NCBI GenBank assembly: GCA_937143345.1
Contig: CAKZRD010000004.1
Location: 1 to 52,132, forward strand
DNA length: 52,132 nucleotides
From: an uncultured archaeon
Lineage (GTDB): Archaea > Nanobdellota > Nanobdellia > Pacearchaeales > GW2011-AR1
Direction of reading: 5' to 3'
The notes under the pieces were generated by a model. The model was not told where the DNA came from and searched no databases. It saw nothing but the letters and a program-made list of their open reading frames with translations. This document shows positions 26,605 through 32,234 of the stretch, one piece after another. Every line of letters begins with the position of its first letter. Within the stretch, counting starts at the first letter, position 1. The translations under genes and the position numbers were made by a program.

Positions 26605-27132
26605 GTGGAATTCGCAGGGACGCATTTTGATAAATCTATGGAGAATGGTAAACTTCCGCCAGAATTATGCGATAACTCTGAATGTAAGAACCTTAAACTA
26701 TTTGATGATAAAAACTTGCTTAAAGAATGGAGAAACTCAAGAAAAGGTTTATGGTTTGAAGATAAGGCAGGCAATATTCTTCATGGGGAAATAGATAACT
26801 TAATGGTGAATAAAACAAATAATAAACTTATCGTTTTGGATTATAAAACCCGTGGCTTTCCTTTGAAAGAAGATACGTATGAGCATTATCAAGACCAACT
26901 TAACATTTATGCTTGGCTTCTTGAAAAATTAGGGCATAAAGTAGAAGACTTTGCTTATTTGTTATTCTATCATCCAAAAGAAGTTCTTGAAACAGGAGAA
27001 GTTGTTTTTAATACGGATTTAAAGAAAATGAAAATCTCTCCAGAAGATGCCGAGAAGCTTTTCAGCAAAGCAATAAAAATGCTTAATGAAGATTGCCCTA
27101 AAGAGAGTTGTGTTTGGTGTGAGAAGGTTTGA
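26605..27132 (+). pseudogene. PD-(D/E)XK nuclease-family protein, apparently 5'-truncated
   Basis: KLPPEL...WRNSRKGLWFEDKAGNILHGEIDNLMV...LIVLDYKTRG...HYQDQLNIYAWLLEK...CPKESCVWCEKV; only a GTG start with an in-frame stop just upstream, and no N-terminal Cys-containing segment. Confidence 0.6.
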
Positions 27133-27244: not shown

Positions 27245-28057
27245 ATGGATGAGATAATTACTACGGGACTTTTGAAAGAGGGCAGTTTATCTGCTCGAAT
27301 TTACTTTTCATTATTAGCAGAACCTAAAACACAATCTCAATTATCTAGGGAGATTTATGATGGTAAAGTTCAATTAGATAATATAAACAAAAACATCAAA
27401 GATCTTATTAATGAAGGATATGTTGAGAAATTGGATAAGCTTTTTGGCAAGGGACAAAATTATAATCAGAATTATTACCAATCTACGCTAAAACCTCTTT
27501 TAGAGTATATCACTAATAAAGTTAAATGGAGAAAGAAAACTAGCAAATCCACAAAAAAGGAAGAAATAACTTCTGCAGACTTGGCTTATTTGAAAATTCT
27601 ATTTAATTCAAACTGGTTTAAGAGATTTTATTCTCAAGGATACCTAAACCTAGATTTAGAAGCTAGTGGTAAATCTAATAAAAGATATTGCTCTTGCCCT
27701 ATTAGATTATTGGCTAGATTAATTGAGGAGATATTTGTAATAGCTGAAATGTTTGGAAATTATGACTTTATCCTATTAAATAAAAACGATAAAATTGATA
27801 ATTTTGATACTTTCATTCTTTCTAATCAAAACAGAATCGATAATACAAAAAGAAAAATTATTAAGAAAGTAATTAATGATGCTAAAGATAACTTGGGATC
27901 TTATCCTAGGACTGATAGCACTATTGATTATTACTTTAAAGATTATGGAGTATTATTCTTACCTTTTGATTTATCAAAGAAATTATCCTCTATTGGAAGA
28001 GTTCCTTTGACAGTTGCTCTTGCTTTTGATAATGCTTTGAAATACCAAGGTCTTTAG
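27245..28057 (+). CDS. Winged-helix regulator-like protein, unknown
   Basis: N-term SARIYFSLLAEPKTQSQLSREIY...NINKNIKDLINEGYVEKL wHTH pattern; large C-term of unknown function. Confidence 0.55.
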   Translation: MDEIITTGLLKEGSLSARIYFSLLAEPKTQSQLSREIYDGKVQLDNINKNIKDLINEGYVEKLDKLFGKGQNYNQNYYQSTLKPLLEYITNKVKWRKKTSKSTKKEEITSADLAYLKILFNSNWFKRFYSQGYLNLDLEASGKSNKRYCSCPIRLLARLIEEIFVIAEMFGNYDFILLNKNDKIDNFDTFILSNQNRIDNTKRKIIKKVINDAKDNLGSYPRTDSTIDYYFKDYGVLFLPFDLSKKLSSIGRVPLTVALAFDNALKYQGL

Positions 28058-28134: not shown

Positions 28135-29073
28135 TTATAAGAACTCTAAACTTACAAGATTACCATTGCAACTAAATTTACCTTTTCCGCCAATAGGTAT
28201 GATTATGTTTTCTACGCAATGCCCTATTTCTTCGATTCTAGCTATTGGAATATTTGAATCTATAAATACTTCTTTAGCAAGCTCTTCAATCGTAACATCG
28301 TTTTCCTTTTGTTTTTGTTCACAAAATGCAAAACTTCCCAAGATAATTCCTCGGCATAAGTGAAATTTTTTATGTTGTTTTATTTGAGTTAATTTGGATT
28401 TAATAACTGATTTTTCTTCCCCTATATCTTCTAATATCAATATATATGGAGAATCTAATATCTCTAATGGATCATATTTAGTTCCAAGTAATAAAGAAAA
28501 AGAAGCTAAACATCCTCCTAAAAATATTCCTTCACCTTGTCCAGGAATTATAGTTCGCCATTTATTTGTATTGGGGTTTTTAATTATATCTAGTTTACCT
28601 TTCTTCAGAAATGAATTTAAGATGTTTTCAGTATATTCAGTTGCATTTTTACCAAGACCCCATAAGAAATCTAGGCCATGATAAGTAATTATTTTAGATT
28701 TTAAAGAGATTACATTAAGCAAAACAGTAATATCACTAAGACCAAAAAAAGGTTTTTTATTATGACTTATAAGATTATAATCTAATAAATCTAATAAATC
28801 ATTAGAGTTATCTCCTCCTTGAGAAGATATGATTGCCCTAATTTTTTTATCTTTAAATGCTTCCATAATATCTTCAGCTCTTTCTTCAGCAGTTCCTGAT
28901 AGGAAGCTTCTTTTTCCATTAAAATGTTTTGAATAATCAAACAAGATAGAATTATTTTTTAGTACTTTTTCCGCTTTTTCAATTAACTCTTTTGCCTCAG
29001 ATTCATCCAGAACATTTGCCGATGGCGAAACAATTCTTACTTTAATTTCTTCTTCTAGTTTCTTCTTTTGCAT
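28135..29073 (-). CDS. S66-family peptidase (LD-carboxypeptidase / MccF-like)
   Basis: VRIVSPSANV, ISSQGGDNSNDLLDLLDY (nucleophile Ser), GLSDITVLLN, TYHG, GIFLGGCLASFSLLLGT. Confidence 0.9.
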   Translation of the reverse strand: MQKKKLEEEIKVRIVSPSANVLDESEAKELIEKAEKVLKNNSILFDYSKHFNGKRSFLSGTAEERAEDIMEAFKDKKIRAIISSQGGDNSNDLLDLLDYNLISHNKKPFFGLSDITVLLNVISLKSKIITYHGLDFLWGLGKNATEYTENILNSFLKKGKLDIIKNPNTNKWRTIIPGQGEGIFLGGCLASFSLLLGTKYDPLEILDSPYILILEDIGEEKSVIKSKLTQIKQHKKFHLCRGIILGSFAFCEQKQKENDVTIEELAKEVFIDSNIPIARIEEIGHCVENIIIPIGGKGKFSCNGNLVSLEFL

Positions 29074-29638
29074 TTTGTACTATCCACTCTGATTTATCCC
29101 TCAGAAAATTAGGATCATTTCCCAAAATTCTGAACATCTCTTTTAGTGAGTCTATCCTCTCAGAACAATAAGGAACTGGACTTTTTATATCTTTAGAAGG
29201 ACTATTATAAATTGAATAAACCTGATTTACATTCTTTTGAATCATTGCCAATTCTAAATAAATTTGAGAGGATTCTGACAGAAAAGCGTTATCTTTTAAA
29301 TCGAACCATTTGAGAGTTATAGGGCAGGTATCCGTTGTATAATTTATTGCTTCTCTTCCATAAACAGCTCCTGGTGAGGAAATCATTCTAGTGGTTAATG
29401 GCAGGGTTGTAAAAAGTGCTCCAAGATTATCAAAATATTCATTTACAGACAAATTAATTCTATGATTTATCTGAGCTATATGTCCCCACATTTCATTTTC
29501 TGAAAAATCCTTTACTCTATTTTCAACTTCCTCTAGCGAGGGGATTATCTTAGATATATCCTTAATTTCCTTAAATATTTTATTACCCATATAGGAAATA
29601 GTTCCATCATGATTAGCTCTATAGGGTCCTAGCATCAT
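29042..29638 (-). CDS. Class II aaRS-like protein (Asp/Asn/Lys-type core, asparagine-synthetase-like), short, lacks motif 3
   Basis: HRINLSVNEYFDNLGALFTTLPLTTRMIS...NAFLSESSQIYLELAMIQKNVNQVYSIYNSPSKD resembles motifs 1-2 of class IIb enzymes; ends before a GxGxGxxR motif. Confidence 0.5.
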   Translation of the reverse strand: MMLGPYRANHDGTISYMGNKIFKEIKDISKIIPSLEEVENRVKDFSENEMWGHIAQINHRINLSVNEYFDNLGALFTTLPLTTRMISSPGAVYGREAINYTTDTCPITLKWFDLKDNAFLSESSQIYLELAMIQKNVNQVYSIYNSPSKDIKSPVPYCSERIDSLKEMFRILGNDPNFLRDKSEWIVQNAKEETRRRN

Positions 29639-29713: not shown

Positions 29714-30670
29714 ATGGATAAAAGTAAACTTAATATAAAGGATATGAAACTTTTAGATTTATTGGATTTAGATTCTAGGGCAAATTTATCAGTACTTTCT
29801 AAACAACTAAGTATTTCTAATCAAGCAACCTCTAAGAAAATAAAGCAACTATTAAATCAAGATTTTTTAAAGTTTGTAACTTTCGTTGACTTATTTTCGA
29901 TAGGATATAATAATGCACACATATACCTTAAATTACAGGGCTATGAAAAGAAAGATTACGAAAATTTTATTATAGAAATTTCAAAAATAAAGGGTATTGC
30001 ATGGATTGCAGAGTTATTTGGAGATTTTGATTTAGGCATTTCATTTTTTTATAAAAATAGTTTAGAGCTCGCAAAATTCATGGAAAAAATAAATATTATC
30101 TGCAAAGAGAATATAAAAGAAAGAGAGACATTTTTTATAAAAGAGCATATAATTTCAAATATATGCTTTGATATAGATTCTAAACGAGTTCTTGATAAAA
30201 TTCAGCTCTCTAATAAAATTTATTCATTAAACAAACAAGAAATGGCAATTCTAGGCAAAATAAAGTCAAACCCCAGATATTCTATTTATTCTTTGTCAGA
30301 AGAACTTAAACTTAATCCAAAAACAATAAAGAACATTATCAAAAGATTAGAGTCTCTTAAGATTATTAGATGGTATAAAATAATCTCAAACTATCGAAAA
30401 CTGAATAAAATGTATAATGTTTGCCTTTTAGAGATAAAGCCTGGCGAGAAGATAGAAAGTATAATGAACTTCTTTGAACAAGAAAGAAACATACCATTTA
30501 TCTCAAGAACTTTTGAAAATAATCTGCTTTTTGATTACATTAGCCAAGATTATCAAGAGATTAAAGATTGTGTAAATCTTTTGAAAAAGAAATTTGAGGA
30601 CAAGATCTTGAATTATAAAATTTTTAGTATAGAGAAAGTGATAAAGAATGTAGAAACCTACGATGAATAA
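29714..30670 (+). CDS. Duplicated Lrp/AsnC-type regulator (two HTH+RAM-like modules in one chain)
   Basis: HTH 1 LLDLDSRANLSVLSKQLSISNQATSKKIKQL and HTH 2 ILGKIKSNPRYSIYSLSEELKLNPKTIKNIIKRLESLKII. Confidence 0.75.
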   Translation: MDKSKLNIKDMKLLDLLDLDSRANLSVLSKQLSISNQATSKKIKQLLNQDFLKFVTFVDLFSIGYNNAHIYLKLQGYEKKDYENFIIEISKIKGIAWIAELFGDFDLGISFFYKNSLELAKFMEKINIICKENIKERETFFIKEHIISNICFDIDSKRVLDKIQLSNKIYSLNKQEMAILGKIKSNPRYSIYSLSEELKLNPKTIKNIIKRLESLKIIRWYKIISNYRKLNKMYNVCLLEIKPGEKIESIMNFFEQERNIPFISRTFENNLLFDYISQDYQEIKDCVNLLKKKFEDKILNYKIFSIEKVIKNVETYDE

Positions 30671-32066: not shown

Positions 32067-32234
32067 TGCTCCCACCGGGATTCGAACCCGGGTTATCACC
32101 GATCTCCGTATCACCTCGAGAAGGAAAATTTCTTCCAGAGATGTAGTTTCCATAAAGGAAGAAAGCTTCTGTCTCATCGACGCTGCCTTCACTACTTGAG
32201 AGGGTGATGTCCTTGGCCTCTAGACTATGGGAGC
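32067..32234 (-). tRNA. tRNA-Glu (anticodon CUC) with 95-nt intron (32102..32196) at canonical position 37/38
   Basis: Exons GCTCCCATAGTCTAGAGGCCAAGGACATCACCCTCTCA + CGGTGATAACCCGGGTTCGAATCCCGGTGGGAGCA; BHB: CACC-CUCU-CA^A-GUA...UAC-GGAG-AU^C-GGUG. Confidence 0.9.

What the first reader, a model, noticed from the sequence alone, without database searches (positions are those of the whole stretch)
28135..29638. MccF-like S66 peptidase overlapping a half-size class II aaRS-like gene
MccF-type S66 peptidases hydrolyse aminoacyl-nucleotide antibiotics such as microcin C, whose toxic product targets AspRS. Here the peptidase is translationally overlapped (32 nt) by a gene resembling motifs 1-2 of Asp/Asn-type class II synthetases but without motif 3. 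The pair is divergent from a double-Lrp regulator, on a mobile island. It could be an immunity/detoxification or aminoacyl-adenylate biosynthesis module not previously described in archaea.
Basis: partly seen in the sequence, partly recalled or inferred. Interest (0 to 1): 0.6.

Follow-up and report, generated by a model that had tools for sequence, protein, structure and literature searches.

The report
Broken remnant of a tRNA-synthetase-like cluster
The odd "half synthetase" is an in-frame fusion left by a deletion. The undamaged version of this gene cluster, found in many other archaea and some bacteria, joins a stripped-down asparaginyl-tRNA synthetase, often other synthetase copies, a methyltransferase and a microcin-immunity-type peptidase, and probably makes an undescribed asparagine-containing small molecule.

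Summary
The coordinates, S66 identity, 32-nt overlap and divergent double-Lrp gene are confirmed. The 198-aa protein is not a half-size synthetase. Residues 1-145 are the N-terminus of a ~380-aa AsnRS-like enzyme ("AsnX"); the last ~52 residues are the C-terminus of a radical SAM/SPASM protein. The fusion breaks exactly at motif 2, so the product cannot be an active class II enzyme. The rest of AsnX and of the radical SAM gene is not found in this genome. A second genome (L075) shows a different in-frame collapse of the same operon, again sparing the S66 gene.

Full-length AsnX occurs in 33 other loci: DPANN and haloarchaea, Actinomadura and other bacteria. It lacks the OB-fold, keeps the catalytic motifs, forms one clade, and sits near an S66 peptidase (19/33), a methyltransferase (22/33) and often other synthetase copies (Pro, Ala, Lys, Leu, Asn). 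Most of these S66 proteins resemble MccF more than LD-carboxypeptidases. I found no published description. Best reading: a natural-product cluster joining Asn to a small-molecule acceptor, with S66 as the hydrolase or immunity enzyme; the window keeps only its regulator and hydrolase. The chemistry is inferred.

The parts
29204..29638 (-). N-terminal 145 codons of an AsnRS-like class II enzyme (AsnX), truncated just before motif 2
   Evidence: 76-78% identity to the first part of the 384-aa G089 protein and all 36 family-invariant residues of this stretch kept
29042..29206 (-). last ~52 codons of a radical SAM/SPASM protein fused in frame to AsnX (junction at 29203-29206)
   Evidence: 79% identity to the end of the G089 SPASM ORF that directly precedes S66
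   Evidence: chimeric origin
28135..29073 (-). S66 serine peptidase, MccF-like but with a short catalytic loop; Ser113, Glu215, His285 present
   Evidence: Pfam PF02016/PF17676; triad invariant in A4 and A7; model pLDDT 89, best folds BA_5613 and B. anthracis MccF
29042..29073 (-). 32-nt gene overlap, inherited from the radical SAM-S66 overlap (38 nt in G089, up to 35 nt in L075)
29714..30670 (+). double Lrp/AsnC-type regulator, divergent from the cluster; cluster-associated in relatives
   Evidence: 68% identical to the gene divergent from AsnX in G089 (L052), also present at L077, L056, L057
29639..29713 (.). divergent intergenic region, presumed shared promoter region of regulator and operon
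   Evidence: sequence; inference

Best explanation
The window carries the wreck of a biosynthetic operon. The ancestral order, read from the relative G089 across a contig gap, was: double-Lrp regulator (divergent), AsnX, SAM methyltransferase, LysRS-like enzyme, [gap], radical SAM/SPASM enzyme, S66 peptidase. In the window a deletion joined codon 145 of AsnX in frame to the last ~52 codons of the radical SAM gene, removing everything between; regulator and S66 gene stay intact and plausibly still expressed. In intact clusters elsewhere AsnX is an AsnRS without its anticodon-binding domain that most likely still binds ATP and Asn (or Asp) and hands the activated amino acid to a small-molecule amine rather than to tRNA. 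Varying partner synthetase copies (Pro, Ala, Lys, Leu, Asn) supply a second aminoacyl group, a methyltransferase and sometimes radical SAM or other enzymes tailor the product, and the MccF-like S66 peptidase hydrolyses the acyl-amide bond as self-immunity or turnover. In the window only this hydrolase and its regulator would remain, as orphan resistance or detoxification. Shown: fusion, clustering, family membership, kept and lost motifs. Inferred: ATP-dependent Asn transfer, nature of the product, immunity role of S66.
For: Fusion. No intact AsnX, no in-family methyltransferase and no further part of the radical SAM gene in G000. A second, different in-frame collapse with a 75%-identical S66 in L075. 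Recurrence: 33 loci; S66 within 7 kb in 19, methyltransferase in 22, both in 16, another aaRS-like gene in 24, a few of them housekeeping; typical order AsnX-MTase-ProRS-like-S66, co-directional. Genome co-occurrence of AsnX and S66: 8/10 against 17/176, Fisher p=1.3e-6. AsnX: best solved relatives AsnRS (130 bits, against 80 for AspRS 1b8a); model pLDDT 91.7, top folds AsnRS with Asn-adenylate; OB-fold absent, motif 2 Arg/Glu, the Glu pair and motif 3 Arg invariant, flipping-loop region rebuilt; one clade, 100/100. Cluster synthetases occur as near-canonical plus divergent pairs (Pro: 557/226 bits; Ala: 462/163 bits); divergent ProRS-like lost the motif-2 acidic residue. S66 of intact clusters: 299 bits to B. 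anthracis MccF, 142 to the best LD-carboxypeptidase; loop Trp equivalent to MccF Trp180 invariant. MccF cleaves aminoacyl-nucleotide amides and is effective only on Asp and Glu adenylates (PMC3817062, PMC9239234), which fits an Asn/Asp-activating partner. aaRS-like aminoacyl transfer to small molecules is established for AcmF and SbzA (PMC12945691).
Against: No product, acceptor or enzymatic activity is known. No complete radical SAM-type cluster was found; the G089 operon is split over two contigs, so the ancestral order is partly inferred, and the N-terminal match of its radical SAM gene is weak (E=0.06). The window S66 lacks the Trp loop that contacts the nucleotide in MccF, so its substrate may differ. 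AsnX keeps ATP-site residues, unlike AcmF, so the AcmF parallel holds for the logic, not the mechanism. 14 of 33 loci have no S66 nearby, in part because contigs end.
Confidence: 0.58

Rival explanations
1. The fusion is an assembly or binning artefact: the organism has the intact operon and the assembler joined two separated stretches.
For: The genome is a fragmented draft (31 contigs, 90% complete); no reads can be inspected; the two halves show no sign of decay.
Against: No long shared word at the junction, only a few bases of possible microhomology. The displaced parts of AsnX and of the radical SAM gene are absent from the rest of the assembly. A second genome from another project has a different in-frame collapse of the same operon. 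Frame is kept in both.
Confidence: 0.2
2. AsnX is an ordinary ammonia-dependent asparagine synthetase (AS-A or archaeal AS-AR type) and S66 a general peptide hydrolase; their proximity is just shared amino-acid metabolism under an Lrp regulator.
For: AsnX lacks the OB-fold, as AS-A and AS-AR do, and matches the NCBIfam asparagine synthetase A models (95 bits). Lrp regulators often control amino-acid genes (general knowledge).
Against: It scores higher against AsnRS (133 bits) and far below the asparagine synthetase cut-off (389). It is not explained why the partners are Pro-, Ala-, Lys- or Leu-type synthetase copies, a methyltransferase, and in places ABC exporters, radical SAM or PhyH enzymes. 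The S66 proteins are MccF-type.
Confidence: 0.12
3. The extra synthetases are spare or inhibitor-resistant copies for translation, and the S66 enzyme detoxifies an aaRS inhibitor from competitors: a resistance island rather than a producer cluster.
For: Near-canonical ProRS, AlaRS and AsnRS copies occur in some clusters. MccF is a resistance enzyme. Resistant aaRS copies are known for other inhibitors (PMC9437257).
Against: AsnX lacks the anticodon-binding domain and has a rebuilt flipping-loop region. The divergent ProRS-like proteins have lost a motif-2 catalytic residue. A conserved methyltransferase and tailoring enzymes point to synthesis.
Confidence: 0.15
4. The 198-aa chimera itself is a functional protein with a new role next to S66 (the first reader's module).
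For: Open frame, no violated family-invariant residues, low non-synonymous divergence in both halves.
Against: It lacks motif 2, motif 3 and the whole ATP site. The second half is the tail of an unrelated enzyme family. No second genome has this fusion. Divergence mostly predates the deletion, so the constraint says little.
Confidence: 0.04

Closest known systems
Asparaginyl-tRNA synthetase (AsnRS; e.g. P. horikoshii 1x54, T. thermophilus 9sh8)
   Same: Catalytic core, motif 2 Arg/Glu, motif 3 Arg, and the positions aligned to 1x54 Glu228 and Arg364
   Different: AsnX has no OB-fold anticodon-binding domain, a shortened motif-2 loop without its Arg, a replaced flipping-loop region, and forms a separate long-stem clade
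MccF, microcin C self-immunity peptidase (S66; 3gjz, 3tlb)
   Same: Cluster S66 proteins: whole-length match, Ser-Glu-His triad and loop Trp180 equivalent
   Different: No mccA/mccB operon seen; ThiF genes are absent from 3 of 9 cluster genomes and appear on other contigs in the rest. The window's own S66 lacks the Trp loop
Ascamycin cluster (AcmD AlaRS, AcmF AlaRS-like transferase, AcmE hydrolase; PMC12945691)
   Same: Near-canonical plus divergent synthetase pairs and a cleaving hydrolase in one cluster
   Different: Different synthetase (Asn core), S66 instead of an alpha/beta hydrolase, mostly archaea; AsnX keeps ATP-site residues that AcmF lost; no sulfamate genes identified
Archaeal asparagine synthetase AS-AR / AsnA
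   Same: OB-less class IIb enzyme related to AspRS/AsnRS
   Different: AsnX scores lower to these models than to AsnRS and sits in a multi-synthetase cluster
Haloarchaeal LeuRS-B/LeuRS2
   Same: Natrinema gari and N. altunense carry a LeuRS gene directly beside AsnX; the function of haloarchaeal duplicate LeuRS is described as unknown (PMC9437257)
   Different: Whether this LeuRS is the published LeuRS-B was not tested

Membership tests
Class II aaRS core (198-aa window protein) | Motif 2 (fRxE) and motif 3 (GxGxER) | tested here: not met
   Motif 2 replaced by SPSKDIKS; sequence ends before motif 3
AsnRS (AsnX of relatives) | Class IIb catalytic motifs with Asn-type residues | tested here: met
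   Invariant R147, E149, E163, R307, E351-R352 in 29 sequences; alignment to 1x54; that Glu228/Arg364 bind Asn is from memory
AsnRS (AsnX of relatives) | N-terminal OB-fold anticodon-binding domain | tested here: not met
   Only ~45 residues precede the core
AsnRS (AsnX of relatives) | Falls inside the AsnRS clade and above family cut-offs | tested here: not met
   Separate clade 100/100 (few outgroups); 133 bits against cut-off 414
Asparagine synthetase A / AS-AR | Score above the NCBIfam family cut-off | tested here: not met
   95 bits against 389
Peptidase family S66 | Both Pfam domains over cut-off and Ser-Glu-His triad | tested here: met
   107.5 and 87.4 bits; Ser113, Glu215, His285 invariant
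MccF subfamily (window S66) | Closer to MccF than to LD-carboxypeptidases | tested here: met
   121 bits to BA_5613 MccF-like, 80 to B. anthracis MccF, 66 to best LD-carboxypeptidase; by fold the two groups are close
MccF subfamily (window S66) | Catalytic loop with Trp180 | tested here: not met
   Loop shortened in window, G089 and L075; present and invariant in intact-cluster S66
MccF subfamily | Hydrolysis of microcin C or aminoacyl-sulfamoyl adenosine | not testable with these tools
   Needs enzyme assay
Microcin C type operon | MccB-type ThiF adenylyltransferase in the cluster | tested here: inconclusive
   None in 3 of 9 genomes; in the other 6 the hits carry contig numbers other than the one suggested by the cluster contig's accession
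Ascamycin-type aaRS-derived cluster | Canonical plus divergent synthetase pair and a cleaving hydrolase | tested here: met
   Pro pairs in L056 and L058, Ala pair in L083 (AlaRS tandem also in L081), S66 adjacent; met in a subset only
Ascamycin-type aaRS-derived cluster | Nucleoside sulfamate acceptor genes | not tested
   No sulfamate pathway models were run

The most novel reading that the evidence does not exclude
A previously undescribed class of natural-product clusters, shared by DPANN archaea, haloarchaea and some bacteria, builds Asn-containing conjugates from a tRNA-independent AsnRS-derived ligase plus interchangeable second synthetase-derived enzymes, with an MccF-type peptidase as self-immunity. 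Degenerate loci such as this window keep only the regulated immunity gene.
Probability: 0.42. Interest if true: 0.82.

Novelty: new variant of a known kind. Interest (0 to 1): 0.6.

Why it matters
DPANN archaea have tiny genomes and are not known as natural-product makers. A conserved multi-synthetase cluster with an MccF-type enzyme would point to aminoacyl-conjugate chemistry (possibly aaRS inhibitors) in archaea, and may give a role to some duplicated synthetases such as the LeuRS copy next to AsnX in Natrinema. Natrinema gari is a cultured haloarchaeon, and genome editing has been published for strain J7-2 of that species (PMC10433800), so the idea can be tested directly. The window also warns that an apparent new small protein family can be a deletion fusion.

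Tried and rejected
Half-size class II synthetase: rejected, it is a fusion. Viral or plasmid origin: no AsnX in IMG/VR, no Natrinema AsnX in PLSDB, radical SAM fragment not in IMG/VR. Integration island with att repeats: no second copy of the tRNA 3' end in the window. Search of genome contigs with the chimera alone: nothing; the full-length family alignment worked. Intact radical SAM-type cluster: not found among 186 relatives or by S66 over 371 genomes of the phylum. The G027 radical SAM protein (464 aa, 31-35% identical) is not in an AsnX cluster. dN/dS was mostly saturated at synonymous sites, so no claim of selection is made. Nine literature searches found no description of the cluster; subscription journals are largely not covered.

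Full report
What is in the window. Two overlapping genes lie on the minus strand: an S66 serine peptidase (28135-29073, 312 aa) and a 198-aa ORF (29042-29638) overlapping it by 32 nt. A double Lrp/AsnC-type regulator (29714-30670) is divergent. The S66 assignment is secure (107.5 and 87.4 bits to the two Pfam domains; Ser113, Glu215 and His285 conserved; AlphaFold2 model pLDDT 89 with BA_5613 and B. anthracis MccF as nearest solved folds). The class II similarity of the 198-aa ORF is weak and below the Pfam cut-off (16.5 bits against 25).

The 198-aa ORF is a fusion. Searching 186 related genomes gave nine places where residues 1-150 match the start of an open frame of 371-432 aa (38-76% identity), and a tenth where residues 145-198 match the end of a different, 151-aa frame. 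In the relative G089 the first is a 384-aa AsnRS-like gene next to a 68%-identical double-Lrp regulator. The second is the C-terminal part of a SPASM-domain radical SAM protein directly upstream of, and overlapping, a 69%-identical S66 gene. DNA alignment puts the junction at about 29203-29206, in frame, with only a few bases of possible microhomology. The family motif 2 (SFRKEKADATHLSEF) is cut away exactly there. The fragment violates none of the 36 family-invariant residues in its stretch, so the deletion is recent, or the join is artificial.

Real deletion or assembly error. A profile of full-length AsnX finds only the fragment in the window's own genome; its other hits there are distant canonical synthetases. 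The only family-methyltransferase hits are weak and partial, the best with two stop codons. The only part of that radical SAM gene is the tail in the window. The genome is 90% complete. An independent metagenome contig, L075, shows another collapse: an AsnX with a frameshift, then 19 codons of the methyltransferase fused in frame to the C-terminal half of the same radical SAM protein, then an S66 gene 75% identical to the window's. Two different in-frame deletions that spare a translationally overlapped S66 gene are what one would expect if S66 expression is kept while biosynthesis is lost, but two cases are few and reads could not be checked.

The intact cluster. A search of 84,980 species genomes with the full-length alignment gave 33 family loci: Woese-, Pace-, Nano-, Parv-, Micr- and Aenigmarchaeota, the haloarchaea Natrinema gari, N. 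altunense and Halomicroarcula, and bacteria including Actinomadura, Patescibacteria and Zixiibacteriota. Taxon labels of metagenome bins may err. Within 7 kb of AsnX there is an S66 gene in 19 of 33, a methyltransferase in 22 (16 above 200 bits to a model built from 8 of them), both in 16, and another synthetase-like gene in 24, a few of which are housekeeping genes. A common order is AsnX, methyltransferase, ProRS-like (one or two), S66, all co-directional (L076, L060, L058, L056). In the relatives' genomes AsnX and S66 co-occur in 8 of 10 against 17 of 176 (Fisher p=1.3e-6; genomes are not independent). In Natrinema gari the cluster is methyltransferase, LeuRS (full-length model match), AsnX, ABC ATPase, ABC-2 permease, S66. 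In Actinomadura it is AsnX, methyltransferases, S66, then a PhyH dioxygenase and a radical SAM/SPASM protein.

AsnX. Its closest solved relatives are AsnRS (1x54, 130 bits, against 80 for the archaeal AspRS 1b8a). The model (pLDDT 91.7) is closest to AsnRS bound to asparaginyl-adenylate or its analogue. The N-terminal OB-fold is missing. Across 29 sequences motif 2 Arg147/Glu149, the Glu251/Glu252 pair, Arg307 and motif 3 Glu351-Arg352 are invariant. The positions aligned with P. horikoshii Glu228 and Arg364 (Asn-recognition residues, from memory) are kept as Glu163 and Arg307, and Leu127 stands where AspRS has a Lys. The motif-2 loop has lost its Arg, and the flipping-loop region is replaced by an insertion of low model confidence. 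AsnX forms one clade on a long stem (100/100), separate from the AsnRS/AspRS included and mixing archaea with bacteria. This looks like an enzyme that still makes Asn-AMP but no longer serves tRNA; that step is inferred.

Partner synthetases. Several clusters hold a near-canonical synthetase without its editing domain beside a divergent one: ProRS 557 bits plus ProRS-like 226 bits in L056 (the same tandem in L058), AlaRS half 462 bits plus AlaRS-like 163 bits in L083 (the same tandem in L081), canonical AsnRS next to AsnX in L066 and L072, LysRS-like in L053 and G089. The divergent ProRS-like proteins have lost the acidic residue of motif 2 (FRDE to FRNI, FRDI and similar), and the divergent AlaRS-like proteins show VDAGAGLDR to FEFAVGIER. 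This resembles the ascamycin cluster, where AcmD charges tRNA-Ala, the truncated AlaRS-like AcmF transfers Ala to a nucleoside sulfamate and AcmE cleaves it (PMC12945691).

S66. In the intact clusters the S66 proteins match B. anthracis MccF with 299 bits and E. coli MccF with 283, against 142 for the best LD-carboxypeptidase. The loop Trp equivalent to MccF Trp180 (a residue mutated in entry 3sr3) is invariant. MccF hydrolyses the amide between aminoacyl and nucleotide and is effective only on Asp and Glu adenylates (PMC9239234 and PMC3817062), which suits a cluster built on an Asn/Asp-activating enzyme. The window, G089 and L075 S66 proteins form a sub-group that has lost this loop and may cleave a different, radical-SAM-modified product.

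Conclusion. The reported pair is a degenerate locus: a fusion remnant plus a surviving MccF-related hydrolase and its regulator. The interesting object is the intact cluster, for which I found no published description. It belongs to the known kind 'synthetase-derived natural-product clusters' but combines features not seen together in the literature searched. Shown: fusion, clustering, families, motifs. Not shown: substrate, product, direction of the S66 reaction, and whether S66 is immunity or turnover.

Noticed in passing
window 32067-32234 (-): Intron-containing tRNA gene (about 97 nt between the anticodon arms) directly upstream of the integrase gene; missed by ARAGORN, found by Rfam. No duplicated 3' end in the window.
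   Followed up: partly
window 26605-27132 (+): PD-(D/E)XK nuclease ORF (36 bits to PF12705, matching only profile positions 100-237) that looks 5'-truncated, next to a 270-aa ORF (27245-28057) without family match: further decayed or foreign DNA near the remnant.
   Followed up: no
L071 and L073, 5000-13050: Natrinema gari and N. altunense carry a LeuRS gene within an AsnX/methyltransferase/ABC exporter/S66 cluster, a possible context for a haloarchaeal LeuRS duplicate of unknown function.
   Followed up: partly
L068 8923-19078: Actinomadura sp. NBRC 104425 has an apparent natural-product cluster with AsnX, methyltransferases, S66, PhyH dioxygenase, a long ORF that looks like an aminotransferase fusion by eye, and radical SAM/SPASM.
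   Followed up: partly
L070 1065-4712 and 6664-9657: The AsnX locus of a Nanoarchaeia bin is flanked by genes that look like PP-loop enzymes and XTP-pyrophosphatases (by eye), a diaminopimelate-decarboxylase-like enzyme and a ParA-like gene; L057 also has the decarboxylase next to AsnX.
   Followed up: no
L056 10245-11153 and L080 2151-3038: DUF34/NIF3 proteins of unknown function sit inside the AsnX cluster.
   Followed up: no
L067 16605-17432: A ThiF/MoeB-like ORF (by eye) about 6.5 kb from AsnX in a Zixiibacteriota bin, which has no S66 nearby.
   Followed up: no
L055 13104-14107: The S66 gene of this Pacearchaeota cluster is split in two frames, while AsnX, ProRS-like and methyltransferase are intact: the opposite decay pattern to the window.
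   Followed up: no
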